DNA of 64,000 nt, taken from a virus. A program made the translations under genes and the position numbers. The DNA lies in IMG/VR virus record IMGVR_UViG_3300036398_003678, positions 1-64,000 of that record. The stretch is one strand, 5' to 3'. Numbering within the stretch: the stretch's first letter is position 1; each line of letters begins with the position of its first letter. Of the stretch, positions 19,821-40,606 are shown one piece after another. The notes under the pieces are model-generated. The model was not told where the DNA came from. It did not search any database and saw only the letters and a program-made list of their open reading frames with translations.

Positions 19821-19849
19821 TCTATTTAAATGAAGGAGTGAAAAAGGAT

Positions 19850-20215: not shown

Positions 20216-20220
20216 ACTAT

Positions 20221-20240: not shown

Positions 20241-20275
20241 AAGTGGTTTGAAATACTCCTGACAAGGAACTCAAC

Positions 20276-22659: not shown

Positions 22660-22662
22660 TCA

Positions 22663-23040: not shown

Positions 23041-23043
23041 TTT

Positions 23044-23352: not shown

Positions 23353-23357
23353 AAAGA

Positions 23358-23777: not shown

Positions 23778-24786
23778 AGAAGACGTAAAAAAGAATTTTG
23801 GAGATAATGTAATATTAACAGCTAACTCTGTTATTGATAAAAATCTAGTAACTATTCCGGTCGGTCCGGCACTAGATGTTGTTTTGAACGGAGGAATACC
23901 AGAAGGCTCTTTCGTTATTTTTACTGGTCAACCCAAATGCGGTAAGACAACAACATCCCTCGACTTTTGCGCTACTGCACAGAAAAAAGAATATGCTCAC
24001 GGATCATTCAAAGAGGGTAGAGAAGTGTACTACCTTAACATAGAAGGTAGATTGAAAAAAAGAGATCTAGAAGGAATCCCAGGACTCAATCTTGATAAGT
24101 TTAATATCATAGGATCTCAAGAAGGTAAGATATTACATGCAGAAGAATATCTACAGATAGCAGAAAGAATCATTAATGAAATACCCGGGTCGGTAGTTGT
24201 TATAGACTCATATTCAGCACTATGCACCGAGACAGAAATTACAAGCGATATGAATAAGATGCAAAGAGCAGACGGAGCGAAGCTACTTGCTAAATTCTGT
24301 AGAAAAGTCGCAAATGTTATTCCGGTTAATAGAAATATTGTGATTGGTATTACTCATCAAATGGGCAATCCTGGTATGGGACACAGCGAATGGAAAGAAA
24401 AGAGCGGTCAGGCCATAGCATATCAAACAGATATTAAAATTAAGGCTAATTATTTTAGCCCATGGAATCTAACCGCCGATAGTCCACAAATAGGACAAGA
24501 GGTTCATTGGCAAGTTGTGTGTTCTGCTCTTGGTGCTCCCGGTGGTAAAATCACAAGTTACCTAAGATACGGACAAGGTATTGATAAGCAAATGGAACTA
24601 TTAACACTGGCCGTAGATCTTGGCTTAATATCTAAGGGCGGAGCGTGGTATACTATCAGTTCCGTAGAAGATAAACCAAAGTTTCAAGGACTTGAAAAAA
24701 CAAGACAGTATCTATTAGATCATCCAGAAGTATATGACGACTTATGGAATAAAGTTAAAGATACTATGGGAATCAAATGCAAGTAA
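23764..24786 (+). CDS. RecA/UvsX-type recombinase
   Basis: The 340-residue protein has the RecA core: Walker A G-Q-P-K-C-G-K-T-T-T (about residues 55-64), E-V-Y-Y-L-N-I-E-G (catalytic Glu region), Walker B V-V-V-I-D-S-Y-S-A-L, and I-V-I-G-I-T-H-Q-M (Gln switch). It lacks the long N-terminal helix and C-terminal domain of bacterial RecA. It drives strand exchange and replication restart. AAGGA lies 5 bp before the ATG. The nuclease gene that follows overlaps by 10 bp. Confidence 0.88.
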   Translation: MMGLKEDVKKNFGDNVILTANSVIDKNLVTIPVGPALDVVLNGGIPEGSFVIFTGQPKCGKTTTSLDFCATAQKKEYAHGSFKEGREVYYLNIEGRLKKRDLEGIPGLNLDKFNIIGSQEGKILHAEEYLQIAERIINEIPGSVVVIDSYSALCTETEITSDMNKMQRADGAKLLAKFCRKVANVIPVNRNIVIGITHQMGNPGMGHSEWKEKSGQAIAYQTDIKIKANYFSPWNLTADSPQIGQEVHWQVVCSALGAPGGKITSYLRYGQGIDKQMELLTLAVDLGLISKGGAWYTISSVEDKPKFQGLEKTRQYLLDHPEVYDDLWNKVKDTMGIKCK

Positions 24787-26045: not shown

Positions 26046-27524
26046 ATGATACTATGCGACCCTGCCGCAGAAAGAGCAGTTCTAAGCGGTATATTCCAAT
26101 ATGGCGATGACTCTTATCTTGAAGTATGTGATCTTCTTAAAGAATCAACATTTACTATAGACAGTAATCAATATATATATAAATGCTTAGCTCATGTATT
26201 ATCTGTTGGAAAAACAGAACATACAGATACTATTAGTACGAAAAAACTAGATATAGCATCCATATACTCAGCTGCCCAAGAACTAGGGATATCTCACCTA
26301 TTACAAAAAAAGGAAGAGGTTCAGCATTTACAGGCCATTAGAGATTTCCCTGTTGAAAAATCTAATGTTAAAAAATTTGCCGCAAAGATAAAAAAGCTAG
26401 AAATAGCAAGAGACCTATATAAATCGCTCGGAGATACTCAAGAGAAGCTATTAGATATTACCGGCACCGAAAGCATATCGTCTATTCTTTCTATCGCGGA
26501 AGACACGATACTTGATTTTTCTACAGGGCTGGTGGATAATGCTACTGAACCGGAGTCGATTAGTAAAAACCTAGATGATTATATCAATAATCTAATAGAT
26601 AATCCGATTAGTCAGATGGGTATACCCACTGGGTTTCCTGTATACGACATGGCTATAGGCGGTGGACTTAGAAAAAGCACTATCAATGTGATAGCAGCTA
26701 GACCGAAAGTCGGTAAAACATTATTGTCTGATAATATAGGTTTTCATATCGCCAATAAGCTAAAAATTCCGGTCTTAAATATGGACACAGAAATGACCAA
26801 AGAAGACCATATACACAGACTCATAGCTATGAGCGCCGAGGTCGAAATGTCAAAAATAGAAACCGGCAAATTCGCAGAGACGCCAGCTATGAAAGAAAAG
26901 GTACTCAAAGCAGTAGAGGATTTAAAACAAACGCCCATTTTTCATAAAAGCATTGCCGGTAAGCCCTTTGATGAACAAATATCTATGATGAAAAGATGGC
27001 TCATTAAAGAAGTTGGACTGAATGACGATGGAACCGCTAAAGATTGCGTTATATTTTATGACTATCTAAAGCTCATGGACTCTGCTGGTATATCTCAAGA
27101 CATGAAGGAATATCAGGTTCTAGGGTTTATGATGACCGCTCTTCATAATTTTGCTTGCAAATATAAGCTACCAATCGTGGCGTTTGTACAATTAAATAGA
27201 GACGGCATATCCAAAGAAAGCACAGACACCGCATCTGGATCGGATCGAATCATATGGCTTTGCAGTAATTTTACTATATTTAAGCGTAAGTCAGATGAAG
27301 AAATAGCAGAAGACGGACCAGAAGCGGGGAACAGAAAGCTTATACCTGTAATAAGTCGTCATGGCGGAGGGCTCGACGACAATGATTATATTAATTGTCA
27401 CATGAAGGGTTGGTGCGCCAAAATTTCCGAAGGTCAAACAAGAATAGAACTTAAAAATAATTTGGGTATAAAAACTAATGGCTTTACAATCGATGAAAAT
27501 AAAGATCAAATCGACTTCGTATAA
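26046..27524 (+). CDS. dnaB: DnaB-type replicative DNA helicase
   Basis: The 492-residue protein has the DnaB N-terminal helical domain (P-A-A-E-R-A-V-L-S-G-I, residues 6-16), a linker and a RecA-like motor from about residue 190. The motor includes G-I-P-T-G-F-P-V-Y-D, Walker A A-A-R-P-K-V-G-K-T (217-225), V-I-F-Y-D-Y-L-K-L (Walker B region, Asp) and V-A-F-V-Q-L-N-R. It unwinds DNA at the fork and works with the primase, whose gene overlaps it by 47 bp. Confidence 0.93.
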   Translation: MILCDPAAERAVLSGIFQYGDDSYLEVCDLLKESTFTIDSNQYIYKCLAHVLSVGKTEHTDTISTKKLDIASIYSAAQELGISHLLQKKEEVQHLQAIRDFPVEKSNVKKFAAKIKKLEIARDLYKSLGDTQEKLLDITGTESISSILSIAEDTILDFSTGLVDNATEPESISKNLDDYINNLIDNPISQMGIPTGFPVYDMAIGGGLRKSTINVIAARPKVGKTLLSDNIGFHIANKLKIPVLNMDTEMTKEDHIHRLIAMSAEVEMSKIETGKFAETPAMKEKVLKAVEDLKQTPIFHKSIAGKPFDEQISMMKRWLIKEVGLNDDGTAKDCVIFYDYLKLMDSAGISQDMKEYQVLGFMMTALHNFACKYKLPIVAFVQLNRDGISKESTDTASGSDRIIWLCSNFTIFKRKSDEEIAEDGPEAGNRKLIPVISRHGGGLDDNDYINCHMKGWCAKISEGQTRIELKNNLGIKTNGFTIDENKDQIDFV

Positions 27525-28668
27525 TCAAAATCAGTTAAAAGTATTATCGGATAATATTTGTGATAATATAGAAGAAGTTTTATCTAGACTAGATATTTCT
27601 GAATATCGGCTTATGTCTAGAATGCTGACTATGAGCTGCCCTATACACGGAGGAGACAACGAGTCTGCTTTAAACCTATATCACGAAGGAGATACATATA
27701 GAGGCAATTGGAAATGTAGAACGCATCAGTGTGAAAAGGTTTTTAAGGCATCTGTGATAGGTTTTATACGTGGGGTATTGTCCCATAAAAAATTTAATTG
27801 GGTTAAAGATGGAGACCCAACAGTTTCTTTTCAAGAAACAATAGCAGTGATCAACGATATTCTCGGCGAAAAGAATATTGATCAACTAAATGTAGATTCT
27901 AAAGAAATAGAAAAACAAAAGTTCTCCAATACCATAAAGTATCTATCAAAAGAACATATCAATAGAGATATTATTAAAATAGATAAAAATTTGGTTAAAA
28001 AATCACTAGATATTCCTTCGCCATACTTTTTGTCTAGGGGCTTTTCTAGCGAAATTCTGAAAAAATTTGATGTCGGAGAATGTCTCAAACCTAATAAAGA
28101 GATGTATTTGAGAGCAGTAGTGCCTATCTATGATCTAACTGGTAAGTGGGTGGTGGCCTGTACTGGCAGAAGCATATTTGATAAGTGTTCTAAGTGTTCA
28201 TCTTTTCATAGTCCAGAAACTACATGTCCCAGTAAAACAATATCTAAATGGAGACATAGTTCTGGTTTTAGAAGTGAAGAAAATTTGTACAATATATGGA
28301 ATGCTAAAAATCATATAACTGATACTAAAACAGTAATCATAGTAGAAAGCCCCGGCAATGTCTGGAGGCTAGAAGAAGCGGGCATATATAATGCAGTAGC
28401 TGTTTTCGGTTCTTCACTCAGCGATAAGCAAAAAATGTTATTAGACATATCTGGTGCTATGAAGATTATTACGATTATGGACAATGACGAAGCTGGCCTT
28501 AAAGCCGCAGAGAGCATAACGAATAAGTGTTCAAGAACCTATTTAATAGATCATATAAGACTAGAAAATATATGCCAAGAGCATTCTGTTAATTATGCAG
28601 ATGTTGGGGATATGACGGTGGAAGAAATTAATAAATATATTAGGCCAAAGATAGGAGAAATATTGTGA
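27478..28668 (+). CDS. DnaG-like DNA primase
   Basis: The 396-residue protein has an N-terminal zinc-binding domain (about residues 48-82, C-P-I-H ... C-R-T-H-Q-C) and a TOPRIM domain with V-I-I-V-E-S-P-G-N (catalytic Glu, about 282-290) and I-M-D-N-D-E-A-G (Asp pair, about 336-343). A second Cys set (C-S-K-C ... C) near 240 may bind another metal. The helicase-interacting C-terminal domain of bacterial DnaG is missing. It overlaps dnaB by 47 bp in another frame. Confidence 0.85.
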   Translation: MALQSMKIKIKSTSYNQNQLKVLSDNICDNIEEVLSRLDISEYRLMSRMLTMSCPIHGGDNESALNLYHEGDTYRGNWKCRTHQCEKVFKASVIGFIRGVLSHKKFNWVKDGDPTVSFQETIAVINDILGEKNIDQLNVDSKEIEKQKFSNTIKYLSKEHINRDIIKIDKNLVKKSLDIPSPYFLSRGFSSEILKKFDVGECLKPNKEMYLRAVVPIYDLTGKWVVACTGRSIFDKCSKCSSFHSPETTCPSKTISKWRHSSGFRSEENLYNIWNAKNHITDTKTVIIVESPGNVWRLEEAGIYNAVAVFGSSLSDKQKMLLDISGAMKIITIMDNDEAGLKAAESITNKCSRTYLIDHIRLENICQEHSVNYADVGDMTVEEINKYIRPKIGEIL

Positions 28669-29399
28669 CACTGATTCTAGGATTTTCTGGTAAAAAACAG
28701 TCTGGAAAAACAACATCCGGTAATTTTATTGTATCATTATGTATGTCTAAGCTCGGGTTGGCTGGGGACATTAAAATAGATAATAATGGTAAAATTATCG
28801 TATCGGACTTACTGGGTAATAGAAGCTACAAAGGCATTTATGATGCTGAGCAGCTGGTTAACGATACTGATGATTATATACTAATGGAGATTAGAGAAAG
28901 GCTCAATCCTTATATCAAAATATATAATTTTGCTGATACCTTAAAAAAAGATATTTGTATCAATATTCTTGGTCTGAGTCGTGATCAGTGTTATGGAAAT
29001 GAAGATGCCAAAAATAGTCTTACCAGCTTAGAATTAGACGGGGCTGCAATGACAGCGAGAGAAGTTATGCAGTATATTGGCACAGATATATTTCGTAAAT
29101 TAAGCCCTAATATTTGGGCAGATGCTACTATCAGAAAGATACAGAGAGAAGCGCCAAAAATAGCAATTATTACAGATTGTAGATTTCCTAACGAGGTAGA
29201 TATTATTAAAAATAGTGGTGGACACGTTATTAGATTAACGCGTAGTCCATACGAATCTGATCATATTAGTGAAAATATTTTAGACAAAGATCAGTACGAC
29301 TGGAATAATTTTAGTTTTGTTATAGATAATGATCAAATGTCTATATATGAACAATGCATGGAGATACAAAACGCTTTAAAAGAGGTGCTATCATTATAA
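28665..29399 (+). CDS. Deoxynucleoside monophosphate kinase-like P-loop protein
   Basis: The start is a GTG at 28665 within a 4-bp overlap with the primase gene. The 244-residue protein has Walker A F-S-G-K-K-Q-S-G-K-T-T (about residues 7-17), a central Y-G-N-E-D-A-K segment, M-Q-Y-I-G-T-D-I-F-R, and I-I-T-D-C-R-F-P-N-E (about 166-175), a signature of phage dNMP kinases (T4 gp1 type). It would phosphorylate dNMPs made by the RNR, deaminase and MazG pathway. Confidence 0.82.
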   Translation: MTLILGFSGKKQSGKTTSGNFIVSLCMSKLGLAGDIKIDNNGKIIVSDLLGNRSYKGIYDAEQLVNDTDDYILMEIRERLNPYIKIYNFADTLKKDICINILGLSRDQCYGNEDAKNSLTSLELDGAAMTAREVMQYIGTDIFRKLSPNIWADATIRKIQREAPKIAIITDCRFPNEVDIIKNSGGHVIRLTRSPYESDHISENILDKDQYDWNNFSFVIDNDQMSIYEQCMEIQNALKEVLSL

Positions 29400-30436
29400 T
29401 AACGTATTTTAGAAGCAGTTCATATAATACCCATAGTATGTGCGAGCAGCAGTTCTTTATGGAATATGTATTGGGTTGGAGAGGACCATCCGGACAAAAG
29501 GCAGATAAAGGAACTATTGTACATAAGGTTCTAGAAATCTTGGCGTTTATTAAACAGTCTCAACAGGACAATATTGCATTTTTTACGGATGATATCGTAG
29601 GGAAAGTTAATGTTGATGACTATAGCCTTAACACCATAATAGAAAAGGTATATAAGCACTATTCCGAAATAAGTACTCATCATAAGTGGTCTATAAAAGA
29701 CTATAAAGACTGTCATGCTTGGGTATATAAAGCTATCGAATTTAATGACGGTATGTTTGATCCACGCAATAGACAAATATTGTGTCCAGAGCAACATTTT
29801 GATTTTGAAATTAAAAAATCGTGGGCTAAATACTCATACGATTTGCCGGACGGATCAAAGTTAGAAGGCAATCTGGCCCTAAAAGGCACCATCGACTTAA
29901 TAACAAAAGTCAACGATAAAACCATAGAGATCGTAGACTGGAAAACTGGACGAAGGCTGGACTGGGCAACAGGACAAGAAAAGACTCAAGAAAAACTAGA
30001 AAAAGACCCACAATTAAGAATATATCATTATGCTATCAGTCATTTATATCCTGAAATAGAGCATATCATGTTTTCTATTTATTTTATCAATGACGGGGGT
30101 CCTTTTTCTGTTTGTTTTGAAAAATCTCACTTAAAAGAAACAGAAGATATGCTTAGGCAAAAATTTGAGTATATAAAGAAAACAAAAAAGCCTAGATTAA
30201 ACAAGAGCTGGATGTGTAGTAAGTTGTGTCATTTCGGAAAAACAACATTTGAAAATACCGGCATCGACCCTATAATTGAATACAGAGACGGTCAGACTTG
30301 TCAAAACGGGTCATTCATGACTAAATGTGAACAAGTTAAACACGATATAGAATTATATAATATCGATACGGTTGTTAATCTGTATAAGAGTCCCAATCAT
30401 ACCTTTGGATCATATAAGGCGCCAGGATCTACATGA
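29354..30436 (+). CDS. RecB/Cas4-type PD-(D/E)XK nuclease with Cys cluster
   Basis: The 360-residue protein has the RecB nuclease set: G-T-I-V-H-K-V-L-E with His57, G-T-I-D-L-I (Asp181), E-I-V-D-W-K-T-G (Asp195, Lys197) and Q-L-R-I-Y (Gln220, Tyr224). Cysteines at 30, 288, 292, 316 and 325 frame the domain as in Cas4/AddB proteins, which hold an iron-sulfur cluster; spacing here differs (C-x3-C, then C-x8-C). It probably processes DNA ends in recombination. The start overlaps the kinase gene by 46 bp and lacks a clear ribosome site. Confidence 0.82.
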   Translation: MHGDTKRFKRGAIIIITYFRSSSYNTHSMCEQQFFMEYVLGWRGPSGQKADKGTIVHKVLEILAFIKQSQQDNIAFFTDDIVGKVNVDDYSLNTIIEKVYKHYSEISTHHKWSIKDYKDCHAWVYKAIEFNDGMFDPRNRQILCPEQHFDFEIKKSWAKYSYDLPDGSKLEGNLALKGTIDLITKVNDKTIEIVDWKTGRRLDWATGQEKTQEKLEKDPQLRIYHYAISHLYPEIEHIMFSIYFINDGGPFSVCFEKSHLKETEDMLRQKFEYIKKTKKPRLNKSWMCSKLCHFGKTTFENTGIDPIIEYRDGQTCQNGSFMTKCEQVKHDIELYNIDTVVNLYKSPNHTFGSYKAPGST

Positions 30437-32301
30437 AAAATTATGTTCCTTTACACGTACACTCCCACTACTCTCTACTTGATGGCTTGAGCAAACCCAG
30501 TCAAATAGCCGCTAGGTGTTTGGATATAGGAGTTAAGAGCTGCGCAATAACGGATCATGGTACCATAGCCGGCGCTGTTCAGTTTCATAATACGATGAAA
30601 ACAAATAAGATCAAGCCTATCCTTGGCTGCGAAATATATTTGTGCCATCAAAATTCTACTATAAAAACAAAAGAAAATAGAGACTTAACGCATTTTTTAT
30701 TGTTGGCAAAAAACTATAAGGGATGGCAAACCTTGATTAAAATAGTATCCGCTTGTAATCACCCAAGTAGATTTTATCACAAACCTAGAATTAGCCTAGC
30801 GGAATTATCTGAATATCTAGACGGAAATATTATAGGTTACTGTGGTCATCTAGGATCTTATTTACACGATATTACCCAACAAGCAAAACCAGAGGACGCT
30901 AAAAATATTGGTATTAATTTTGTGGCACAAATGAAAGAAATGTTTGGGGTTGATAACTTTTTCTTGGAAAGCCAACTCATGGACCAGCAATATAGTCCAG
31001 AACAAATATCTATGACAGAATATGTTAGAGAGTTAGGAAAAACCACTAATACTAAGGTATTATGTACGCCAGACGCTCATTATTGTTCCAAAGAAGATGC
31101 TGTGGATCAAAGGATCTTATTGTGCAACAATCTTAAAACAACTATAGCAGAAATCAATAAAAAGCTCTTAAATAATGAAGACACTTCTATGGCCTGTTTT
31201 TTTAGATCCGATAACTTTCATATTTTATCTCCTAAAGAAATGATCGAGATCCACACAGAAGAAGAGATAGAAAATACAATATATGTAGATTCCTTATGTG
31301 AAGATTATAACATATCAAGCCCTCCGATACTACCTCCTTTTAAATGTCCAAATAATCAAAACCCCGATGAATATCTCAGACAACTATGCCGTGATGGCTG
31401 GGCAAAAAAAATAAAAAATCATATACCAGAATCAGATCATCCAGTTTATGTTGACCGCATTAAATATGAATTAGATATTCTACAAAAGGCCGGTTTATCT
31501 AGTTACTTTTTGATAGTTCAAGATATTGTGCAGTATGTGTCTGAGAATGGATGGCTCCCAGGCCCAGGTAGAGGCTCTGCCGCTGGCTGCTTGGTGTCTT
31601 ATTTAATTGGCATAACATCTATAGACCCTATCAGGTATAATTTAATTTTCGAGCGTTTTTACAACGCAGGCAGAAATACCGCGGATCGTGTGTCCATGCC
31701 AGATATAGACGTTGACGTTCCAATCAATAAGAGAGAAGAAGTTGTAGATTATATAAAAAACAAATACGGTTATAACAAAGTCTCTCAAATGATTACTTTT
31801 AATACTATGAAAGGCAGAGGAGCCTTAAAAGAAGTTTTACGTGTCTATGGTAATATATCTTTTGAAGAAATGAATAGAATCACAAAGAATATCCCAGACG
31901 AAGCTAAGATAGCGGATGAATTGCAAGAAATGAAAGACGATACGGGGGAATCTTCTATCATAAGATGGGCTTTAGAGAACAATGGAGACAAACTGAAAGA
32001 ATGGTGTTACTTAAACGAACACGGAGAGCTTGAGGGTCCTTTAGCAAAGCGTTTTGAGCAGGCTATAAGACTGGAGGGTACTAAATCTAATCAGTCTAAA
32101 CATGCTGCCGGTGTAGTAATAAGCAGCGAACCACTTGACTCTGTGTGTCCTATGGTTTATGATTCTAAAGCAGATCAGACTATAGCTGGCATGGAGATGC
32201 AAGACTTGGAATATTTGGGAATAATTAAATTTGATATTTTGGGTGTTGCGATGTTAGATAAAATGATGGAAGTCTCTCAAATTCTTAAAAATGGAGGTTG
32301 A
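30433..32301 (+). CDS. dnaE: DNA polymerase III alpha, N-terminal part (PHP and palm)
   Basis: This 622-residue half of a family C polymerase holds the PHP domain (L-H-V-H-S-H-Y-S-L-L-D-G, then I-T-D-H-G and T-P-D-A-H-Y) and the palm. Palm motifs are P-G-R-G-S-A-A-G-C, P-D-I-D-V-D (Asp424, 426, 428) and I-K-F-D-I-L-G-V (Asp601), so all catalytic aspartates are here. The PHP metal ligands look largely kept, so PHP proofreading is possible. The protein stops 21 residues after Asp601. The fingers, beta-clamp and OB parts are encoded separately at 33196. Confidence 0.92.
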   Translation: MKNYVPLHVHSHYSLLDGLSKPSQIAARCLDIGVKSCAITDHGTIAGAVQFHNTMKTNKIKPILGCEIYLCHQNSTIKTKENRDLTHFLLLAKNYKGWQTLIKIVSACNHPSRFYHKPRISLAELSEYLDGNIIGYCGHLGSYLHDITQQAKPEDAKNIGINFVAQMKEMFGVDNFFLESQLMDQQYSPEQISMTEYVRELGKTTNTKVLCTPDAHYCSKEDAVDQRILLCNNLKTTIAEINKKLLNNEDTSMACFFRSDNFHILSPKEMIEIHTEEEIENTIYVDSLCEDYNISSPPILPPFKCPNNQNPDEYLRQLCRDGWAKKIKNHIPESDHPVYVDRIKYELDILQKAGLSSYFLIVQDIVQYVSENGWLPGPGRGSAAGCLVSYLIGITSIDPIRYNLIFERFYNAGRNTADRVSMPDIDVDVPINKREEVVDYIKNKYGYNKVSQMITFNTMKGRGALKEVLRVYGNISFEEMNRITKNIPDEAKIADELQEMKDDTGESSIIRWALENNGDKLKEWCYLNEHGELEGPLAKRFEQAIRLEGTKSNQSKHAAGVVISSEPLDSVCPMVYDSKADQTIAGMEMQDLEYLGIIKFDILGVAMLDKMMEVSQILKNGG

Positions 32302-32302
32302 T

Positions 32303-32482
32303 ATGCCCAAGCTATTGTCTGAGGTTGCTGTTGGTGTCAAATTTTCTGTCAATGGTACAGAATATAGGAGAATTGAGGACGTTAGAGTAAGTTGCTGTCG
32401 AGTGGTAAACTGCGTCAATTTGGCCGATGGGTCAAATCAGTTTGTACCACCTAATACCACTGTAGAAGAGTTAAATGGTTAA
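32303..32482 (+). CDS. Small protein between the polymerase halves, 59 aa
   Basis: The start at 32303 has GGAGG 5 bp upstream and follows the stop of the polymerase half by one base. The product is small, with beta-type V-G-V-K-F-S-V-N-G-T-E-Y-R-R-I and a C-C-R-V-V-N-C triple-Cys stretch, then P-P-N-T-T-V-E-E-L. Function unknown. It overlaps the exonuclease gene by 8 bp. Its place inside the polymerase locus makes a replisome role plausible. Confidence 0.6.
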   Translation: MPKLLSEVAVGVKFSVNGTEYRRIEDVRVSCCRVVNCVNLADGSNQFVPPNTTVEELNG

Positions 32483-33173
32483 TTTTCAAAAATTATGCGT
32501 GTTTGATATGGAAACTGACGGGGCTGATCCATCGCGATGCAGCCCTGTTCAGATTGCAGCCGTAATGATAGATCCGATTAAGTTAGAGATTATTAAAGAC
32601 TCTCAATTTAATTGTACATTAAAGCCAGAAGCAATAGAAGAGAACCCGACGTATTCCTATGCGGATTCTGATGTTTTAGATTTTCATGCTAAGGTTAAGA
32701 GTTCTTCTAAGGAGCAAATCTTAAAAGAATGGCATGCTTATCAAAAGCAAGAATCTGGGTGGCAAATGTTTGTGTCCTATCTAGATATGTATCACAGCAG
32801 ATCTGAAAGAAAATCTTTTTTCAGCGCTCCAATTGCATGTGGATATAATATACATAGATTCGATTTAAAGATCGTAGATAGATTAAGTAAAAAGTATAAG
32901 AATGTAACCAAGGAAGGAACCACAAGCCTATTCTATCCTAGAGATACTATAGACTTGATGCATATGATGTTTTTATGGTTTGAAAATAATGGAGATCTTA
33001 AAAACTATACCCTAGATTCTGTAAGAGATTATTTTGGAATCCCAAAAGAAGGCGCCCACGATGCTCTAAAAGACGTTATGGATACAGCAGAACTGCTTTT
33101 AAGGTTTTTGAAGCTACATAGAAATCTTGCTAGGAAAATCAAATTCAGAGACTCTTTTGCGATCTCCGAGTAA
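32475..33173 (+). CDS. DEDDh 3'-5' exonuclease (DnaQ-like), probable proofreader
   Basis: The 232-residue protein has Exo I V-F-D-M-E-T-D-G (Asp11, Glu13), Exo II A-C-G-Y-N-I-H-R-F-D-L (Asp near residue 129), and Exo III G-A-H-D-A-L-K-D-V-M-D (His and Asp near 195-200), the DEDDh set. DnaQ-like proteins proofread for DnaE. It lies between the two polymerase halves, 22 bp before the second. It is 8 bp into the end of the small upstream gene. Confidence 0.88.
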   Translation: MVNFQKLCVFDMETDGADPSRCSPVQIAAVMIDPIKLEIIKDSQFNCTLKPEAIEENPTYSYADSDVLDFHAKVKSSSKEQILKEWHAYQKQESGWQMFVSYLDMYHSRSERKSFFSAPIACGYNIHRFDLKIVDRLSKKYKNVTKEGTTSLFYPRDTIDLMHMMFLWFENNGDLKNYTLDSVRDYFGIPKEGAHDALKDVMDTAELLLRFLKLHRNLARKIKFRDSFAISE

Positions 33174-33195
33174 GGACTAATCATAAATAGGTTAT

Positions 33196-34827
33196 ATGTC
33201 AGAATACTATACGTTTGATTGTGGATGTAAATTTCCATTGGATAAACACGATGGGGAGTCAATACCTCGTATTAATTTTTCTCCATATATTGATAACATA
33301 GATCTTGCTTGTAATAGAACTTGGGAATTAATAGGCTCTGGCAATACAAAAGGATGCTTTCAGTTAGAGTCTAGGCTTGGCCAATCTATGGCAAAAAAAT
33401 TGAAACCCAATAATATTGAACAGCTATCTGCTTTGATAGCGATATTGCGCCCTGGTTGTCTGGAAGCCTTAAGAGATGGCAAGAGCGTTAGTAATCACTA
33501 TATAGACAAGAAAAATGGATCAGAATCTATAGATTATTTTCATCCTAGTTTAGAGCATATACTCAAAGAAACCTATGGGGAGATGATATATCAAGAACAG
33601 GCGATGCAAATATCTCAAGAGATAGCTGGGTTCGATTTGCAGGAAGCTGACGTTCTCAGAAAAGCCATTGGAAAGAAAAAGCCAGAGGAAATGGCTAAAC
33701 TGAAAACCAAGTTCATAGAAGGATGTAAGACTAAAAAAATAGTGACAGAATCAGAAGCCGAAGAAATTTTCGGATGGATCGAAAAAAGCCAAAGATACTC
33801 TTTTAATAAGTCTCATAGCGTTAGTTACGCTATAAATGCTTACTTATCGGCTTTTGCCAAGGCTCATTTTCCTAGAATATTTTTTGCTTCTTATCTCAGA
33901 TATGCAAAAGACAAAGTTGATCCGAAACAAGAAATCAAAGAATTGGTAAAAAATGCCAATCAAATGAATATAGATATTAGAGTACCGGACTTTAGAGATA
34001 TGTCTAAACTATTCTATCTCAAGAATAAAGTTATCTATTTTGGTTTAACAAATATAAAGGGCCTTGGAGATTCGGTATATGAAAAGATTACCGCCCTATG
34101 TCACGGAAAAGATCTAGGGTCTATGTCCTGGGCATATATCCTATTACAGGTACTCCCTAATATCAATTCTTTGGCAGCTAAAAATATGATATCATCAGGG
34201 GCTTTTGATTATCTTAAGATCAACAGAACAGAGATGATTTTACAATATGAACTTATCTCAAGACTTACACAAAAAGAGATCGATTTTTTGATAAGCTCAG
34301 TCGATGGGTCGAAAAATTTGTCTCTGAATAAGTCCGTCCTGCAACTACTACAAAAGCCTAAACTCACACAAAAAAGAAAAGAAGTAATTAATAATATTCT
34401 GGAAACTTTAGACCATCCTCCATATTCTTTGATAGATAAAATAGAATGGTTATCTGACACCGAAGAAACACTACTAGGCACGGCTATAAGCTGTTCCAAA
34501 CTAGATTCATATGATATGGCTATGACTAATACAGACTGTAAGGATTTCCATAATAATAAAGGCTTAACCAAAAATATTATCATTGCTGGAGAAATAGATA
34601 ATATCCATATAGTCAAAACAAAAAAAGGTAAGAACCCAGGACAAGAAATGGCTTTTATAAGCATATCGGATCAATATGGCTCCATAGACTCTATTATATT
34701 TTTTCCAGAAAAATATCTAGAATACAAACACCATCTATTTGTTAATAATATACTAATATTTATAGGCTCTAAAAACAAAGAGATGGACGGCTTGATCGTA
34801 GAGAAATGTTTTATGCCGTCGTCTTGA
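33196..34827 (+). CDS. dnaE: DNA polymerase III alpha, C-terminal part (fingers to OB fold)
   Basis: The 543-residue second half starts with a short Cys-containing segment (Asp-Cys-Gly-Cys, residues 9-12), then N-T-K-G-C-F-Q-L-E-S (about 50-59), R-P-G-C-L-E, Y-Q-E-Q-A-M, R-Y-S-F-N-K-S-H-S-V-S-Y (fingers, near 195) and the helix-hairpin-helix region L-T-N-I-K-G-L-G. A C-terminal OB-fold starts near K-N-I-I-I-A-G-E-I. In E. coli DnaE the F-Q-L-E-S segment follows the third catalytic Asp in the same chain. TCATAAATAGG lies just upstream. TTGACA of a promoter overlaps its stop codon. Confidence 0.91.
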   Translation: MSEYYTFDCGCKFPLDKHDGESIPRINFSPYIDNIDLACNRTWELIGSGNTKGCFQLESRLGQSMAKKLKPNNIEQLSALIAILRPGCLEALRDGKSVSNHYIDKKNGSESIDYFHPSLEHILKETYGEMIYQEQAMQISQEIAGFDLQEADVLRKAIGKKKPEEMAKLKTKFIEGCKTKKIVTESEAEEIFGWIEKSQRYSFNKSHSVSYAINAYLSAFAKAHFPRIFFASYLRYAKDKVDPKQEIKELVKNANQMNIDIRVPDFRDMSKLFYLKNKVIYFGLTNIKGLGDSVYEKITALCHGKDLGSMSWAYILLQVLPNINSLAAKNMISSGAFDYLKINRTEMILQYELISRLTQKEIDFLISSVDGSKNLSLNKSVLQLLQKPKLTQKRKEVINNILETLDHPPYSLIDKIEWLSDTEETLLGTAISCSKLDSYDMAMTNTDCKDFHNNKGLTKNIIIAGEIDNIHIVKTKKGKNPGQEMAFISISDQYGSIDSIIFFPEKYLEYKHHLFVNNILIFIGSKNKEMDGLIVEKCFMPSS

Positions 34828-34904: not shown

Positions 34905-35282
34905 ATGAATATTACGATTCTTAAGGGTAATCTAGCTCGTGATCCAGAGGTGCGCATGGTTGGTTCGGGCGACAAGCAAACTTCTGTCGTTAATTTTACC
35001 GTTGCGGTATCACGCGAATACACAAAGGCAAACGGCACAAAGGACAAGATTACTTCTTTTATCAATTGTGAAGCTTGGGACTCTGGCGCAGAGATTATCG
35101 GAACTTCTTTCAAGAAGGGTGATCTGGTAATGATCGAAGGATCTCTAAGAAATGATTCTTGGGAAAAGGATGGCGTTAAGCATAGCACTCTGAAGGTAAG
35201 AGTCAATAATTTTTCAAAAATCACAAAGCTATCTAGATCCGCTTCAAAGGATCAGTCAACAGAAGAAGTTGTTGCTTTCTAA
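34905..35282 (+). CDS. ssb: Single-stranded DNA-binding protein (bacterial type)
   Basis: The 125-residue OB-fold protein has the bacterial SSB pattern: K-G-N-L-A-R-D-P-E-V-R, V-V-N-F-T-V-A-V-S, F-I-N-C-E-A-W-D, and K-G-D-L-V-M-I-E-G-S-L-R. It ends E-E-V-V-A-F; the last residues are acidic with a terminal Phe, as in bacterial SSB tails that dock partner proteins, though the usual D-D-I-P-F is not exact. A strong promoter, a leader hairpin and a following terminator make it a single-gene unit. AAGGAGAAC precedes the ATG. Confidence 0.92.
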   Translation: MNITILKGNLARDPEVRMVGSGDKQTSVVNFTVAVSREYTKANGTKDKITSFINCEAWDSGAEIIGTSFKKGDLVMIEGSLRNDSWEKDGVKHSTLKVRVNNFSKITKLSRSASKDQSTEEVVAF

Positions 35283-35317
35283 GGACAGAACAATCATTAG
35301 CGGAACTAGAGAACTAT

Positions 35318-35341
35318 GAGGGGCGAAAGCCCCTCTAAGTT
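35318..35341 (+). terminator. Terminator hairpin after ssb
   Basis: GAGGGGC (35318-35324), the tetraloop GAAA and GCCCCTC (35329-35335) make a perfect 7-bp GC-rich stem with a stable loop. The downstream TAAGTTTATT is only weakly U-rich. It follows the ssb stop by 36 bp. An ATG at 35316 lies against this stem and is unlikely to be used for translation. Confidence 0.8.
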
Positions 35342-35345
35342 TATT

Positions 35346-37019
35346 ATGACTAATACAAAACTCAAAATCCTAGTTTGTTCAGAAGCGAGTTTTTTAAATA
35401 CCGGGTTTGCAAACTATACCAAAGAACTACTGCAAAGACTGTATGACTCAAATAAATTTGAGATTGCAGAATTTGCTTCTTATGGACTAACGGATGATCC
35501 AAGAAGAGGTAGTATAAAATGGAAATACTATGCAAACGCCGTTAGTTCAAATGATCCTAGATACACAGAGTACAATAAGACAACGGAAAACCAATTCGGC
35601 AGGTGGCGATTTGAAAAGGTGCTTCTGGATTTTCGTCCAAATGTGGTGATAGATGTACGTGACTATTGGATGAATTATTATCAGTCTATTAGTCCTTTAA
35701 GGGATTTTTACCATTGGGTCGTAATGCCAACTGTTGATTCTTATCCTCAGCAAGAGCCATGGATCGAAACATACGCTTCTGCTGATGCCGTATTCACCTA
35801 TTCCGATTGGGGCGCCAAAGTACTCGCCTATCAAAGCAACAATCATATCAATTATATAAATACCGTGTCTCCTGGAGTAGATATAAATCTATTTCAAAGT
35901 TTTGACGATACTAAAAGACAGCAGCTTAAAACAGAGTACGGTTTATCTGATACGTTTTTAATTGGATCAGTCATGCGTAATCAAAAGCGCAAACTTATTC
36001 CGGAACTAATAGTATCGTTTAAAAAACTGATTAACGAACTTAATATAAGTAATCACGCAAAAAAAGATAAGTGTTTTTTATGGCTACATACCAGTTATCC
36101 TGATGCCGGGTGGGACATCCCCTCGCTGCTAAAAGAAAATAATATTTTTTCCAAGATATTATTCTCATACTTCTGTAAACAATGTCATCATGTCAAGGCT
36201 TCTGTATTTTCTGGGGCAACTATTAAATGTCCAAAATGCTCCAGTCGTTCTATGTCTATGCCATCAGTTACAGACGCACCAACTAGCGCGAAACTTTCAG
36301 AAATTTATAATCTTTTTGATTTGTATATACAATATGCTATTTGCGAAGGTTTTGGAATGCCTCAAGTAGAAGGGGCCGCATGCGGTACGCCGATTGCTAC
36401 TGTTGACTATAGTGCTATGAAGGATATTGTCAAGAAGCTTGAAGCAGACCCGATTAGAGTGCGTAAAAAATTTAAAGAGTTGGAGACTAAAGCCTTTAGG
36501 GTATATCCAGACAACGCGCAGCTGCTACAGATTATTCATAAGTATTTGAACTATACAGACAACGAGATGATACAAATTAGGAGGAGAACTAGGGAGTTAG
36601 TAGAAAAACATTTCGATTGGGATGATATATACAAAAAATGGGAACACTATCTTAGTTCACTAAATCCAGATAATTGTGCCAAAAAACAATGGGATAGTCC
36701 ACCACTGTATTTAGAGCCAATACCTCAGAATATTATGGAGCAAAATATTGATAAGTCTCATAACTTAAATACTTTAACTCTGGTGTGCTCTAAATATCTA
36801 AAAGACTTAAAGTTTTTATGTAATATGAACACCCTAGATATGTTATTCTATGCTGATTATGGCTTTACTCAGCAAGGCATTACGCTTGAGAAATACTCTA
36901 TTACAAATGCACTGGCCGCTATACAAAACAAAATAAATAACCACAATATGGCTGAGCGAGCAAGAGCACAGAACTCACCAATAAATGAAGACTTTATAGT
37001 AGGCGCAAATAATCCATGA
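35346..37019 (+). CDS. Glycosyltransferase family 4 with zinc-ribbon insertion
   Basis: The start at 35346 is chosen because the earlier in-frame ATG (35316) abuts the ssb terminator. The 557-residue GT-B protein has an N-terminal domain starting K-I-L-V-C-S-E-A-S-F-L-N-T-G-F and a donor domain with I-G-S-V-M-R-N-Q-K-R-K near residue 210. A C-K-Q-C ... C-P-K-C zinc ribbon is inserted near 285-310, before C-E-G-F-G-M-P-Q-V-E-G-A-A-C-G-T-P-I. The E-G-F-G-x-P-x-x-E donor motif is intact, so it is probably active. The zinc insertion is unusual for GT4. It opens the eight-gene run. Confidence 0.85.
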   Translation: MTNTKLKILVCSEASFLNTGFANYTKELLQRLYDSNKFEIAEFASYGLTDDPRRGSIKWKYYANAVSSNDPRYTEYNKTTENQFGRWRFEKVLLDFRPNVVIDVRDYWMNYYQSISPLRDFYHWVVMPTVDSYPQQEPWIETYASADAVFTYSDWGAKVLAYQSNNHINYINTVSPGVDINLFQSFDDTKRQQLKTEYGLSDTFLIGSVMRNQKRKLIPELIVSFKKLINELNISNHAKKDKCFLWLHTSYPDAGWDIPSLLKENNIFSKILFSYFCKQCHHVKASVFSGATIKCPKCSSRSMSMPSVTDAPTSAKLSEIYNLFDLYIQYAICEGFGMPQVEGAACGTPIATVDYSAMKDIVKKLEADPIRVRKKFKELETKAFRVYPDNAQLLQIIHKYLNYTDNEMIQIRRRTRELVEKHFDWDDIYKKWEHYLSSLNPDNCAKKQWDSPPLYLEPIPQNIMEQNIDKSHNLNTLTLVCSKYLKDLKFLCNMNTLDMLFYADYGFTQQGITLEKYSITNALAAIQNKINNHNMAERARAQNSPINEDFIVGANNP

Positions 37020-37996
37020 GTATTTTATTTATAGGTCCTTATAGAAATACCGATACTCTGGGACAGGTATCTAGATTGTATATTAGCCAGTTGGCTAAGC
37101 GATATGGTACTGAGGATGTGGTATCTAGACCAGTATATCTATCATCATTGCACAGAATTTTACCGAAAAAAATAGAATTTATTACTGAAAAAACAAGTAT
37201 AGCACAAAATCAATACGATATATGTGTACAGCATCTGCCGTTAGAACACATACAATATATGCCTGACGTAGCTTCTCAACATCATGTATTTCCAATAATA
37301 GAAAATATAGAAGATTTTGGAATATCATCCAGTTCTCTAGATATTTTACGTTTCTTTGATAATATAGTGGTCCAATCAAAAAAAGAGGCTTCCACCATAA
37401 CAACTTATTGTCCCGATCTAGCCGATAAAATATCTATATTAGACACAGGGGTAGATAAGAATAATTTGATTAATTATACTAATAATAAGTACGTTTTCGA
37501 TAACTATCATCATACAAAGAAACTGTATTTTATAGGTAATTTTGATGAAGATGAGGGCATTATCAAAAAAATAATTTTTTCTTTATACTCTAGCATATCT
37601 GAACGTCCGTTTGGAGCTGTTTGCGTATTCTTTTTAGATTATTATAATGCTCCTAATATAGAGCTATTAGAAAACAATATTAAAAATATGCGTTCAGAAT
37701 TTGGCCTTCCAACAGAATATGGAAAAGAAATTTTTATTTTTAAACAATTTACAGAATCAGAAATAATAGCAGCACATAAATCTTGTGATATATATTTATC
37801 TCTAAATGAAAAAAATACTCTATACTTGCAAGAAACTTATGCTAGACTATGCGGAAATACAGTTATAAGTCTTGATGATTACTCAGATATAGCGGTTCCT
37901 ATGAAAACCGAATTGGCTTCATATTCATATCAAATGAAAAGACGAAGTATATCTATCATAAATTTATCTAAATTGATTAAGAGTGCTATTATATGA
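37016..37996 (+). CDS. GT-B-like protein, weakly conserved
   Basis: The 326-residue protein starts I-L-F-I-G-P-Y-R-N-T-D-T-L-G-Q-V-S-R, like GT4 N-termini, and contains I-S-I-L-D-T-G-V-D, comparable to the P-x-G-V-D hinge of GT4. Near the end, S-C-D-I-Y-L-S-L-N-E-K-N-T-L-Y-L-Q-E-T-Y-A matches the donor-site region with the second Glu kept. It overlaps the neighbours by 4 bp each. It is probably a glycosyltransferase; donor and acceptor unknown. Confidence 0.6.
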   Translation: MSILFIGPYRNTDTLGQVSRLYISQLAKRYGTEDVVSRPVYLSSLHRILPKKIEFITEKTSIAQNQYDICVQHLPLEHIQYMPDVASQHHVFPIIENIEDFGISSSSLDILRFFDNIVVQSKKEASTITTYCPDLADKISILDTGVDKNNLINYTNNKYVFDNYHHTKKLYFIGNFDEDEGIIKKIIFSLYSSISERPFGAVCVFFLDYYNAPNIELLENNIKNMRSEFGLPTEYGKEIFIFKQFTESEIIAAHKSCDIYLSLNEKNTLYLQETYARLCGNTVISLDDYSDIAVPMKTELASYSYQMKRRSISIINLSKLIKSAII

Positions 37997-38766
37997 ACTA
38001 TAAACTATCTAATATAGCAAGAACCGCCATCAAAGGCACAAAAAATCATAGGATAGTATACTATCCCCATGGCTCTGTAATGGACAGCATACTCGGCTCA
38101 ATACCGGGCATGACTCTAACTCTATATGAATCAGACATTACGTGCGGGGCTTCATGCGTACTGTTGTACGATAACGCATATAGTGGAAAAGAAAATGAAA
38201 TCGCTAAATATTTTCATACTAATATTGTTAATCTACGTATCTCAGAAATCGAAGACGAATCAGAAAATTGTGAGCATGTATACCAATTTAATTTAGCGGA
38301 TGACTCTTATGGTCTACCAAAACCAATAAAGCCATTGTCTATTCAAAATAAAACATTATTATACATCAGAGATAAGGATCCTTATCACACAGAAATGATA
38401 ATTAGGTTCTTGGATTCTCAGAATATTAAATATGATGCTATAGACCCAAAAATCTTTTATAATAGAGATATACAAGAGATATATGGTTTCTTAAGTCAGT
38501 ATAAGGTCTTATTAAATAACACCAATAAGATAGATCTTTTAGCGGGCTATCGAGCCGGCTGCCTACCAATAACCTTCAAGAATCAGTTCGCTAAAAACAA
38601 ATATCTCAGACTTATAGAAGACAATAAAATACATGATCTTATTTATTCAGAGCATGCTCGCGAAGACAACATGAATGAATTCGATAACTTGTATAATTTT
38701 GATAAGTTTGTGGATCGCTTAATGTCTCATATTAATCACGTCGTATCAACACCATTCATTTTATGA
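37993..38766 (+). CDS. Unidentified protein with GT-B-like C-terminal motif
   Basis: The 257-residue protein is not recognised as a whole. Its C-terminal third has Y-K-V-L-L-N-N-T-N-K-I-D-L-L-A-G-Y-R-A-G-C-L-P-I-T-F split by a short loop, with spacing like the GT4 segment in which a helix ends in A-x-G-x-P-x-I. No complete nucleotide-sugar site is visible. It overlaps both neighbours by 4 bp, so it is coupled to the glycosyltransferase genes. Confidence 0.5.
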   Translation: MNYKLSNIARTAIKGTKNHRIVYYPHGSVMDSILGSIPGMTLTLYESDITCGASCVLLYDNAYSGKENEIAKYFHTNIVNLRISEIEDESENCEHVYQFNLADDSYGLPKPIKPLSIQNKTLLYIRDKDPYHTEMIIRFLDSQNIKYDAIDPKIFYNRDIQEIYGFLSQYKVLLNNTNKIDLLAGYRAGCLPITFKNQFAKNKYLRLIEDNKIHDLIYSEHAREDNMNEFDNLYNFDKFVDRLMSHINHVVSTPFIL

Positions 38767-39176
38767 TCAAATCATTTATAATATCACACGTACCAAACGA
38801 TACCAACTCCATAACCATAGAGCAAAGCGCGCAGATACCCAATTATTATGCTCAAGAGATAGAAATACAATCTCCAGGCGTTCTCATGAATATCGATGAG
38901 TCCGTATACGAAACTATACTAAAACTATCCAAAAAGCTTTGTTTAAATGGAGTACTGTCTTTTAACATATTAGATATGAAAGATTTGGCTAAACACTATT
39001 TATCTGGGGCTGTAGAGGAAACAGAATTCCTTAATATCATAGAGGATAATAAAGGATTCAGCTTTGATATCTCATATTTTATATCAGTATTAAAAAGCAA
39101 TACAGATATTACGCTTAAAAATATCAACAAAGAACAATTTATATTAAACATAACTATAGAAAGAATAGCCGTTTAA
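38763..39176 (+). CDS. Hypothetical protein of the glycosyltransferase run, 137 aa
   Basis: The protein is unrecognised: an N-terminal strand K-S-F-I-I-S-H-V-P, then a helix L-K-L-S-K-K-L-C-L-N-G-V-L-S-F-N-I-L-D, and a beta-rich end (F-I-L-N-I-T-I-E-R). The middle resembles the late strand-helix part of a class I methyltransferase (G-V-L-S-F-N-I) but no SAM motif I is present. It overlaps the upstream gene by 4 bp. Confidence 0.48.
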   Translation: MIKSFIISHVPNDTNSITIEQSAQIPNYYAQEIEIQSPGVLMNIDESVYETILKLSKKLCLNGVLSFNILDMKDLAKHYLSGAVEETEFLNIIEDNKGFSFDISYFISVLKSNTDITLKNINKEQFILNITIERIAV

Positions 39177-39177
39177 C

Positions 39178-39933
39178 ATGAAAGACACCAACTGCAAAAA
39201 CTGTATTTTTTCGTCGCCCGCTGCACAAGACCACGAGCCAAAATGCGAATTCGGTATTGTGGATAAGATAAAAAACATAAAAGAAAAAGACATTAGCATA
39301 GAACACGGGTATTACAAAATAAATAACTATTTGTGTCGATATGGTTTCTCTAAATCTGCTTATGACAGCAATCAAGAACATATCAAGGGTATGGACCTTA
39401 AAAATAAACTACTAGAGAGACTTAAATTACGATATTATCTGGTTGTTGACGCTAGAGGAGTCTCTTTCGATAACTCTCTTATTAATAAAATAAACACAGA
39501 AGATGGCTGTCCTGGATACCTATCTATTATTGTCGATAATGATGAAGATGCTAAGAAGTATATAGACCTTATAGAATCCGATGCCAATAGAAAATATGGA
39601 TATAAGATACACTGCATATTTGAGAAGGGCGAAATAGGCCAAGTGCTCAATATGATATTAGATACAAATATGAGAAGGAATAATACCCAATATTTTTGGA
39701 TTTGGAAAATAGACAATATACCAGATCTTAATAAGTCTATATCTTCTATTAAAGAGATTCTACATATTTACCAACCAGATTGCGATTTTATTACCCATAA
39801 CTCAATGACTATAAAAGATATTTATGGACTATTCTTACCTTTTGAATACTATGTTTTTATAAAAGATGGATATGCTTCTTTAGAAAAAGCTGTCAATAAG
39901 TATGAAAATCCCAGAGTAGTATATTATGAGTGA
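39178..39933 (+). CDS. Unidentified protein with N-terminal Cys cluster, 251 aa
   Basis: The N-terminus has C-K-N-C-I-F and later C-E-F-G and C-R-Y-G (within residues 5-60), a possible metal site. The central part (about 80-170) has Y-Y-L-V-V-D-A-R-G-V-S, S-I-I-V-D-N-D-E-D-A and F-W-I-W-K-I-D-N-I, which could be a GT-A-like alpha/beta fold with an Asp-containing turn. The family assignment is not secure. It starts one base after the upstream stop. Confidence 0.48.
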   Translation: MKDTNCKNCIFSSPAAQDHEPKCEFGIVDKIKNIKEKDISIEHGYYKINNYLCRYGFSKSAYDSNQEHIKGMDLKNKLLERLKLRYYLVVDARGVSFDNSLINKINTEDGCPGYLSIIVDNDEDAKKYIDLIESDANRKYGYKIHCIFEKGEIGQVLNMILDTNMRRNNTQYFWIWKIDNIPDLNKSISSIKEILHIYQPDCDFITHNSMTIKDIYGLFLPFEYYVFIKDGYASLEKAVNKYENPRVVYYE

Positions 39934-40606
39934 TGTAAATATTTTATTTTTAGCTTCTGAGATTACTAAGGGTATGAAATCTATAGGGCCAAAATGTCTG
40001 CTATCACTGAATAACAATATGTCTGTGCTAGACTATCAGCTATCCAAAGCTAAGTCACAATTTAAGCACGCTAGAATTAGCGTATTAACAGGGTTCGAAA
40101 ACGAAAAGGTAAGAAAATATCTAAATAATAAACATAAATCCGTCACTTCTATCGTTGACCCATACTATGCTAAATCTAATCAAACTCATGCTATATTAAC
40201 AGCAATACAGTATTTATCAGACATTAAAAACTTATTTATTGTTGGTAGCGGCATACTTTTTAAAGAGTATCCAAAAATAAAAACCAGTGATAAATCAACC
40301 TTATATTATCTGAATAATCAAAAAGAAAACTTTAGTTTAGGAAGTCTTGGTACACAAGCGGCCAAATATATCTTCTATGACCTACCACACACTTGGTCAG
40401 AATGCGTATTCTTAGATGAAAAGAGTATCGACAATATGCGGCTTTTAAATAAAAATGTTTTTGGGCAACTGTATCTTTTTGAACTTATCAACAAACTAAT
40501 AGATCAAAATATAGAGTTTTCCACTAATGTAATAGACAAAAAAAATATATTTAAAGTAGGGTCACATAAAGACATTCTTAAGGCAAAAAGATTTTCCTCA
40601 ATATGA
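39926..40606 (+). CDS. Nucleotidyltransferase-like protein (sugar-nucleotide type)
   Basis: The 226-residue protein follows the NTP-transferase order: N-I-L-F-L-A-S-E-I-T-K-G-M-K-S-I-G-P-K-C-L-L-S-L (broken here), where P-K-C-L-L matches the P-K-x-L-L motif. Then come V-L-D-Y-Q-L-S-K-A-K, I-S-V-L-T-G-F and L-F-I-V-G-S-G-I-L-F in place of the usual V-x-G-D. The usual metal-binding Asp of that strand is replaced by Ser-Gly, so activity is uncertain. It probably arose from enzymes making NDP-sugars or phosphocholine donors. Confidence 0.6.
   Translation: MSDVNILFLASEITKGMKSIGPKCLLSLNNNMSVLDYQLSKAKSQFKHARISVLTGFENEKVRKYLNNKHKSVTSIVDPYYAKSNQTHAILTAIQYLSDIKNLFIVGSGILFKEYPKIKTSDKSTLYYLNNQKENFSLGSLGTQAAKYIFYDLPHTWSECVFLDEKSIDNMRLLNKNVFGQLYLFELINKLIDQNIEFSTNVIDKKNIFKVGSHKDILKAKRFSSI

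What the first reader, a model, noticed from the sequence alone, without database searches (positions are those of the whole stretch)
30433..34827. DNA polymerase III alpha is split into two genes with a proofreading exonuclease between them
The N-terminal half (PHP and palm, Asp424/426/428 and Asp601) stops 21 residues after the third catalytic Asp. The C-terminal half restarts before the F-Q-L-E-S segment. A 59-residue gene and a DEDDh exonuclease lie between. Cyanobacterial split DnaE breaks elsewhere (at the S-F-N-K-S-H-S motif) and uses a split intein. Here neither junction shows intein residues. The halves would have to assemble non-covalently, and the exonuclease is made in equal reading order, so a polymerase-exonuclease complex with a fixed gene order is likely. 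Family C polymerase as a two-piece enzyme with an internal exonuclease gene looks new to me.
Basis: partly seen in the sequence, partly recalled or inferred. Interest (0 to 1): 0.78.

Follow-up and report, generated by a model that had tools for sequence, protein, structure and literature searches.

The report
Phage replicative polymerase in two genes
A widespread but uncultivated group of large phages makes its main DNA-copying enzyme as two separate proteins, with a likely proofreading enzyme encoded between them; split phage polymerases were known before, but this conserved three-gene unit seems undescribed.

Summary
DnaE-type Pol III alpha is encoded as N (PHP+palm, 30433-32301) and C (fingers+HHH+OB, 33196-34827), with a 59-aa gene and an intact-looking DEDDh exonuclease between. 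It is not an artefact: all 274 related loci (152 distinct exonuclease genes) show the order N-exo-C and none has an intact polymerase, whereas bacterial DnaE genes pulled in by the same search run through the junction. The family is one clade (SH-aLRT 100). Catalytic residues are invariant and all three genes show protein-level constraint. No other polymerase was found in the large relatives checked. The junction is too short for an intein, and Rfam finds no intron.

Most likely the halves assemble non-covalently and the exonuclease proofreads; both steps are inferred.

The claim of a new two-piece family C polymerase is only partly right. Splits are known in PolA, PolB and a minimal jumbo-phage Pol III, and Rossellomorea phage phiT1 has a fission at this very junction. 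What appears new is the stable N-exo-C unit and a Cys-rich head on C (140 of 143 heads, 0 of 27 bacterial).

The parts
30433..32301 (+). DnaE N-half (622 aa): PHP domain and palm/NTP-binding domain, with all three catalytic Asp
   Evidence: Pfam PHP and DNA_pol3_alpha; TIGR00594 profile positions 1-572; AlphaFold pLDDT 86.6, Foldseek best 2hpi E=2e-43; 35-row alignment
31702..31716 (+). codons of D424, D426, D428 (PDIDVDVP motif)
   Evidence: D424, D426, D428 invariant over 35 sequences
32233..32235 (+). codon of D601, third catalytic Asp (FDILG), 21 residues before the stop
   Evidence: invariant
32303..32482 (+). s59: 59-aa protein of an unnamed family (VGxxFxxNGxEYxKxxxxRVSCC); its end overlaps the exonuclease start by 8 nt; accessory, not universal
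   Evidence: no Pfam/PHROG/NCBIfam/PDB relative; single copy in the record
32475..33173 (+). DEDDh 3'-5' exonuclease (232 aa), predicted proofreading subunit, with a conserved C-terminal tail (FLKLHRNLxxKIKFKxSF)
   Evidence: RNase_T and PHROG 192 'DNA polymerase exonuclease subunit'; catalytic residues invariant; tail constrained as strongly as the domain
33196..34827 (+). DnaE C-half (543 aa): fingers, HHH, OB fold; no obvious clamp-binding motif
   Evidence: Pfam finger and HHH_6; PRK05673 positions 584-1052 of 1146; AlphaFold pLDDT 85.4, matches 4iqj, 7pu7, 2hpi; motif scan
33196..33312 (+). Cys-rich head of the C-half (C9-G-C11 ... C39), absent from intact DnaE
   Evidence: 140 of 143 distinct heads against 0 of 27 bacterial DnaE; residue C39 aligns with an Asp of E. 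coli DnaE
26046..30436 (+). upstream replication genes: DnaB-like helicase, Toprim primase, dNMP kinase, PD-(D/E)XK nuclease
34905..35282 (+). single-strand binding protein just downstream

Best explanation
This is a true, old gene fission of a phage DnaE-type replicative polymerase. N-half (PHP+palm) and C-half (fingers+HHH+OB) are made as two stable proteins that dock without a peptide bond into one DnaE-shaped enzyme. The break lies in the loop between the palm and the fingers. The catalytic residues are all in N; the nucleotide- and DNA-gripping fingers are in C. The exonuclease made between them is the proofreading subunit (epsilon equivalent), translated from the same stretch of message. 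Shown: gene structure, conserved order, intact catalytic residues, constraint on each protein, one-clade origin, no other polymerase found in the phages checked. Inferred: physical assembly, polymerase activity, exonuclease docking (probably on PHP, as epsilon does), and a role of the Cys-rich head in holding the joint.
For: N-exo-C order in 274/274 loci, 152 distinct exonuclease genes, no intact copy. Bacterial DnaE found by the same kind of C-half search are intact across the junction. One clade, SH-aLRT 100. Catalytic residues of polymerase and exonuclease invariant. Changes concentrate at third codon positions in N, C and exo, including the last 21 codons of N and the exo tail. N, C and exo distances correlate (Mantel r 0.79-0.91). 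One finger domain in each of nine phage records, no Pol A, no Pol B in the own record. Both halves are predicted as confident parts of DnaE. The s59 stop overlaps the exo start in most members. Split PolB halves of phage 25 co-purify and are active, and a split NrdA is active (reviewed in PMC2988022).
Against: No complex was modelled or measured: only single chains could be folded. Exo and C are sometimes separated by other genes (L129, L188, L294), so adjacency is not absolute. Trees are 'quick' trees with long branches. Conserved co-location alone cannot prove binding. Records are linear contigs that may be incomplete.
Confidence: 0.82

Rival explanations
1. The two halves are rejoined at RNA level by a split (trans-splicing) group I or II intron, with the exonuclease as intron cargo.
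For: Introns in phage DNA polymerase genes are common (cited in PMC10580990); homing endonucleases do visit this gene family.
Against: No Rfam intron in the window at gathering score or at E<=1 over 32200-33400. Coding constraint continues to the natural ends of N and through the head of C. A DEDDh exonuclease is not intron cargo of a known kind. Some members have only a few to about 30 nt between N and exo (L289, L357), leaving no room for intron halves there.
Confidence: 0.04
2. Protein trans-splicing by a split intein joins the halves.
For: Cyanobacterial DnaE does this; a PolB of jumbo phage MIJ3 is described with a split intein (PMC6892783); relatives of this family carry inteins elsewhere in the gene (L032, L036, L083).
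Against: Only 21 residues follow D601 and only about 31 precede the conserved fingers, far below intein size; no intein motif (His-Asn followed by Cys/Ser/Thr) is conserved there.
Confidence: 0.02
3. The polymerase does reassemble, but the exonuclease is only a neighbour (a repair or nucleotide-salvage nuclease), not a proofreading subunit.
For: Exo is separated from C by other genes in L129, L188 and L294; sister-like L370 has a split polymerase with an RNase HII gene and no exonuclease between the halves; weak profile similarity also to ExoI-type nucleases.
Against: Present between the halves in 274/274 loci of the family; best phage family is 'DNA polymerase exonuclease subunit'; conserved C-terminal tail beyond the catalytic domain; no other RNase_T nuclease in the record.
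Confidence: 0.2
4. Artefact or decayed gene: frameshift, assembly error or pseudogene.
For: P1201's split at this junction could be such a case, since its relative PotatoChip is intact.
Against: Identical arrangement in independent contigs from many metagenomes, with protein-level constraint.
Confidence: 0.005
5. The halves do not form a polymerase; each has taken a new role and the phage replicates with a host enzyme.
For: No phage clamp was found and the C-half lacks the region after the OB fold that binds tau in E. coli (plus general knowledge).
Against: Catalytic palm residues and much of the finger core are invariant, and the genes sit among helicase, primase and SSB.
Confidence: 0.05

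Closest known systems
Rossellomorea phage phiT1 gp20/gp19/gp18 (PV767480)
   Same: DnaE broken at the same palm-finger junction, with a small ORF (49 aa) between
   Different: No exonuclease between, no Cys-rich head, about 30-33% identity; one phage. Whether the fission is independent is open (p-AU 0.54)
Minimal split Pol III alpha of group 2.2 jumbo phages (PMC7824862)
   Same: Family C polymerase in two standalone phage proteins expected to reconstitute an enzyme
   Different: Genes lie far apart, the enzyme is reduced to core domains, and a family B polymerase is present; here PHP is present and the genes are adjacent
Split family A polymerase of OM43 phages MEP401/MEP402 (PMC10580990)
   Same: Polymerase in two ORFs separated by a small unknown ORF, conserved across a phage group
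   Different: Family A; the exonuclease domain is fused to the first half
T4-like phage 25 and 44RR gene 43A/43B; Aeh1 NrdA genes-in-pieces (reviewed in PMC2988022)
   Same: Gene fission with function retained by non-covalent association
   Different: Family B polymerase or RNR; insert is a homing endonuclease or untranslated stretch, in few phages
Cyanobacterial split DnaE with split intein
   Same: DnaE encoded in two genes (from general knowledge)
   Different: Break at another site, joined covalently by a split intein
Bacillus phage G gp329/gp330/gp331/gp339
   Same: DnaE-like polymerase in pieces, one break close to the third catalytic Asp
   Different: Three pieces, with a homing endonuclease and other genes between; breaks at other positions

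Membership tests
DnaE-type family C DNA polymerase | PHP, palm, fingers, HHH and OB regions in order | tested here: met
   Pfam PHP, DNA_pol3_alpha, finger, HHH_6; NCBIfam PRK05673 positions 5-575 plus 584-1052; OB-like strands in the model
DnaE-type family C DNA polymerase | three catalytic Asp | tested here: met
   D424, D426, D601 invariant
DnaE-type family C DNA polymerase | single polypeptide | tested here: not met
   two genes in every locus
DnaE-type family C DNA polymerase | internal clamp-binding motif and C-terminal tau-binding region | tested here: inconclusive
   no QxxLF-type motif in C; profile match ends at 1052 of 1146; divergent motifs cannot be excluded
Split-intein DnaE or fractured gene | intein halves at the break | tested here: not met
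   21 + about 31 residues only, no splice motif
Split-intein DnaE or fractured gene | break at the SFNKSHS site (cyanobacterial) | tested here: not met
   motif intact inside C-half
Genes-in-pieces made by a homing endonuclease | homing endonuclease gene at the break | tested here: not met
   none at the break in the window; an HNH gene sits at the N/s59 border only in L032 and L052
Genes-in-pieces made by a homing endonuclease | function retained by the pieces | not testable with these tools
   needs purified proteins
Group 2.2 jumbo-phage split Pol III | no PHP, distant genes, accompanied by PolB | tested here: not met
   PHP present, genes adjacent, no PolB in the own record
DnaQ-like DEDDh proofreading exonuclease | DEDDh catalytic residues | tested here: met
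   D11, E13, D130, H195, D200 invariant
DnaQ-like DEDDh proofreading exonuclease | binds the polymerase and edits mismatches | not testable with these tools
   no complex modelling or assay available

The most novel reading that the evidence does not exclude
The family has a stable multi-subunit phage replicase: N, C and exonuclease (with s59 in most members) form one complex, the Cys-rich head of C (C-x-C ... C) acts as a metal staple that replaces the lost peptide link, and the complex works without a phage sliding clamp. The palm-finger junction is a recurrent slot into which phages place functional partner genes (exonuclease here, RNase HII in sister-like L370, a small ORF in phiT1).
Probability: 0.22. 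Interest if true: 0.75.

Novelty: new variant of a known kind. Interest (0 to 1): 0.55.

Why it matters
A replicative polymerase cut between its catalytic palm and its fingers has been kept across a broad phage group seen in many metagenomes, with its likely proofreader encoded in the gap. It offers a natural test of how a family C polymerase tolerates a broken backbone near its active centre, whether co-translation of a proofreader between the halves matters, and how gene fission becomes permanent without an intein or intron. It also warns annotation and marker-gene pipelines that a large class of phage polymerases appears as two partial genes.

Tried and rejected
Assembly error: rejected by 274 loci. 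Intron: Rfam on window and relatives gave nothing. Intein: too short, no motif. Frameshift or readthrough: many stops in all frames and two full genes between. Second intact DnaE elsewhere: none found. Bacteroides phage DAC19, of the only described phage group hit by the exonuclease, has no DnaE pieces next to it (terminase and ligase instead), so it led nowhere. P1201 as a precedent at the same junction: doubtful, because PotatoChip is intact. s59 against Pfam, PHROGs, NCBIfam and PDB: no credible relative. Plasmid search added only dnaE-like genes at about 30% identity. Paper searches found no description of this arrangement, but the library lacks most subscription journals. The 'Fractured genes' paper (PMC2677866) was not held. 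The phiT1 fission as one event with this family: neither shown nor rejected.

Full report
What is there. The window is part of a 121,241-base linear virus record. At 30433-34827 four genes lie head to tail: a 622-aa DnaE N-half (PHP, palm), a 59-aa gene, a 232-aa DEDDh exonuclease and a 543-aa DnaE C-half (fingers, HHH, OB). The polymerase residues D424, D426 and D601 are in N; N stops 21 residues after D601. C begins with a head of about 31 residues before the DnaE homology starts. Against NCBIfam PRK05673 the halves cover positions 5-575 and 584-1052 of 1146, so almost nothing of the linker is lost; the region beyond 1052 is missing. Upstream are DnaB-like helicase, primase, dNMP kinase and a PD-(D/E)XK nuclease; downstream is SSB.

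Is it real. Searches of IMG/VR with the C-half, which are blind to whether the gene is split, returned relatives at about 42-100% identity, and a further search with the exonuclease added more. Over all loci held, 274 carry N, exo and C; all 274 are in the order N-exo-C, with 152 distinct exonuclease genes (several loci come from the same contigs, so 152 is the safer number). No locus in the family had an intact gene. As a control, bacterial DnaE genes found with the C-half profile run without a stop through the junction. The two phage-like contigs binned as Lokiarchaeota (L198, L199) and three binned with bacteria (L195-L197) have the split form. This rules out an assembly error.

Are the pieces functional. 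Catalytic residues are invariant in 35 N-halves and 32 exonucleases. Nucleotide differences pile up at third codon positions in N, C and exo, including the last 21 codons of N and the exonuclease tail; the first 30 codons of C are the least constrained part. N, C and exo distances correlate strongly (Mantel r 0.905 for N/C, 0.79 and 0.82 with exo; 0 of 999 permutations), as expected of genes inherited together. Eight relatives of 192-233 kb have one finger domain each, no family A polymerase and no beta clamp; seven have a single clean N-half. In the eighth (L362) the N-half is broken by stops, perhaps sequencing error. The own record has no family B polymerase. AlphaFold models of the halves (mean pLDDT 86.6 and 85.4) match DnaE structures as expected. 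Only single chains could be modelled.

How it most likely works. The simplest reading is non-covalent reassembly of a DnaE enzyme from two proteins. Protein splicing is ruled out by length and lack of motifs. RNA splicing is made very unlikely by the absence of intron signals, by constraint up to the natural ends, and by members with almost no space between N and exo (L289, L357). Precedent for function of split phage enzymes exists: the 43A/43B halves of a T4-like phage co-purify with polymerase activity, and a split NrdA is active (PMC2988022). The exonuclease is the natural candidate for the proofreading subunit: PHROG 192 is named 'DNA polymerase exonuclease subunit', it has a conserved tail after the catalytic domain, and it is always between the halves in this family. 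That it binds PHP as epsilon does in E. coli is inference from general knowledge.

The small gene. s59 forms an unnamed family (VGxxFxxNGxEYxKxxxxRVSCC) with no relative in the libraries. Its stop usually overlaps the exonuclease start by 8 nt, which suggests coupled translation. It is not essential to the arrangement: L198/L199 have an unrelated 71-aa ORF and L289 and L357 have none.

The head of the C-half carries C-x-C followed about 28 residues later by a third Cys, in 140 of 143 distinct heads and in 0 of 27 bacterial DnaE at the same place. The third Cys aligns with an Asp of E. coli DnaE. L370, a distant split polymerase that groups with the family (SH-aLRT 100, long branch), has the same kind of head but carries an RNase HII gene and two others, not the exonuclease, between the halves. 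This suggests that the Cys head goes with the split, and that the exonuclease was placed there later or lost in L370. A metal site at the joint is a hypothesis only.

Origin. The family is one clade in all trees, so one old fission explains it. phiT1 has a fission at the same junction with a 49-aa ORF; the best tree that includes its closer relatives places it with phages of Bacillota, but joining it to the family is not rejected (p-AU 0.54), so one or two events remain possible. Homing endonucleases still visit: an HNH gene sits between N and s59 in L032 and L052, an intein with an endonuclease gene interrupts N in L032 and L036, an intein sits at SFNKS in L083, and one sublineage has N broken again at the PDIDVD motif with a LAGLIDADG gene between. 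An endonuclease may have caused the original break, but nothing in this window shows it.

What is known. Split phage polymerases have been reported in family A (PMC10580990), family B (PMC2988022; PMC6892783 with an intein) and as a minimal family C enzyme in jumbo phages (PMC7824862). The present family differs in having a full PHP-containing DnaE, adjacent genes, an exonuclease between the halves, and no intein. It is therefore a new variant of a known kind. The literature search covers open-access PMC only.

Verdict. Observation confirmed; interpretation partly supported. Interest 0.55: solid, widespread and easily testable, but conceptually close to published split phage enzymes.

Noticed in passing
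L007 6140-9133; also L061, L064, L074, L076, L078-L080, L195: The N-half is broken a second time at the catalytic PDIDVD motif: the upstream piece ends ..ISFPEF.., a LAGLIDADG gene follows, and the downstream piece has its own conserved extension of roughly 80-100 aa before MPDID. Possibly a three-piece polymerase.
   Followed up: partly
L370 2099-6533: Distant split DnaE with the same junction and a C-x-C...C head, but with a 110-aa ORF, an RNase HII gene and a zinc-ribbon-like ORF between the halves, and no exonuclease.
   Followed up: partly
L032 and L052, about 8440-9134: HNH homing-endonuclease-like gene inserted between the N-half and s59.
   Followed up: no
L032, L036 (N-half at GPGRG|SAAG) and L083 (C-half at SFNKS|H): Inteins with endonuclease genes inside the polymerase halves; the L083 site is the cyanobacterial DnaE intein site.
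   Followed up: no
L188 3587-4570: A prepilin/DUF1559-type gene of the sort typical of Planctomycetota lies between exo and the C-half: a possible host hint, or a chimeric contig.
   Followed up: no
L276 4989-8271 (Rossellomorea phage phiT1): Described phage with DnaE split at the same junction by a 49-aa ORF; annotated as two Pol III alpha genes.
   Followed up: yes
L286 24916-28276 (Corynebacterium phage P1201): Two overlapping Pol III alpha genes break at this junction, while relative PotatoChip is intact: a recent frameshift or a sequencing error.
   Followed up: partly
L285 1-10009 (Bacillus phage G): DnaE-like polymerase in three genes (gp329, gp331, gp339) with a homing endonuclease and other genes between.
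   Followed up: partly
L195-L199: Phage contigs binned into bacterial and Lokiarchaeota genomes; L198/L199 carry what reads as a bacterial-type sigma factor next to the C-half, so the archaeal label is probably misbinning.
   Followed up: no
L362 2225-4095: N-half broken by many stops and frame changes in an otherwise normal locus; looks like sequencing error or decay.
   Followed up: no
window 35316-43294: Run of same-strand genes after SSB; the first is a glycosyltransferase, and six of the following genes scanned have no Pfam match.
   Followed up: no
window 17158-24786: Ribonucleotide reductase small and large subunits, an HNH endonuclease (20988-21608) and a RecA/UvsX-like recombinase (23764-24786) upstream of the replication genes.
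   Followed up: no
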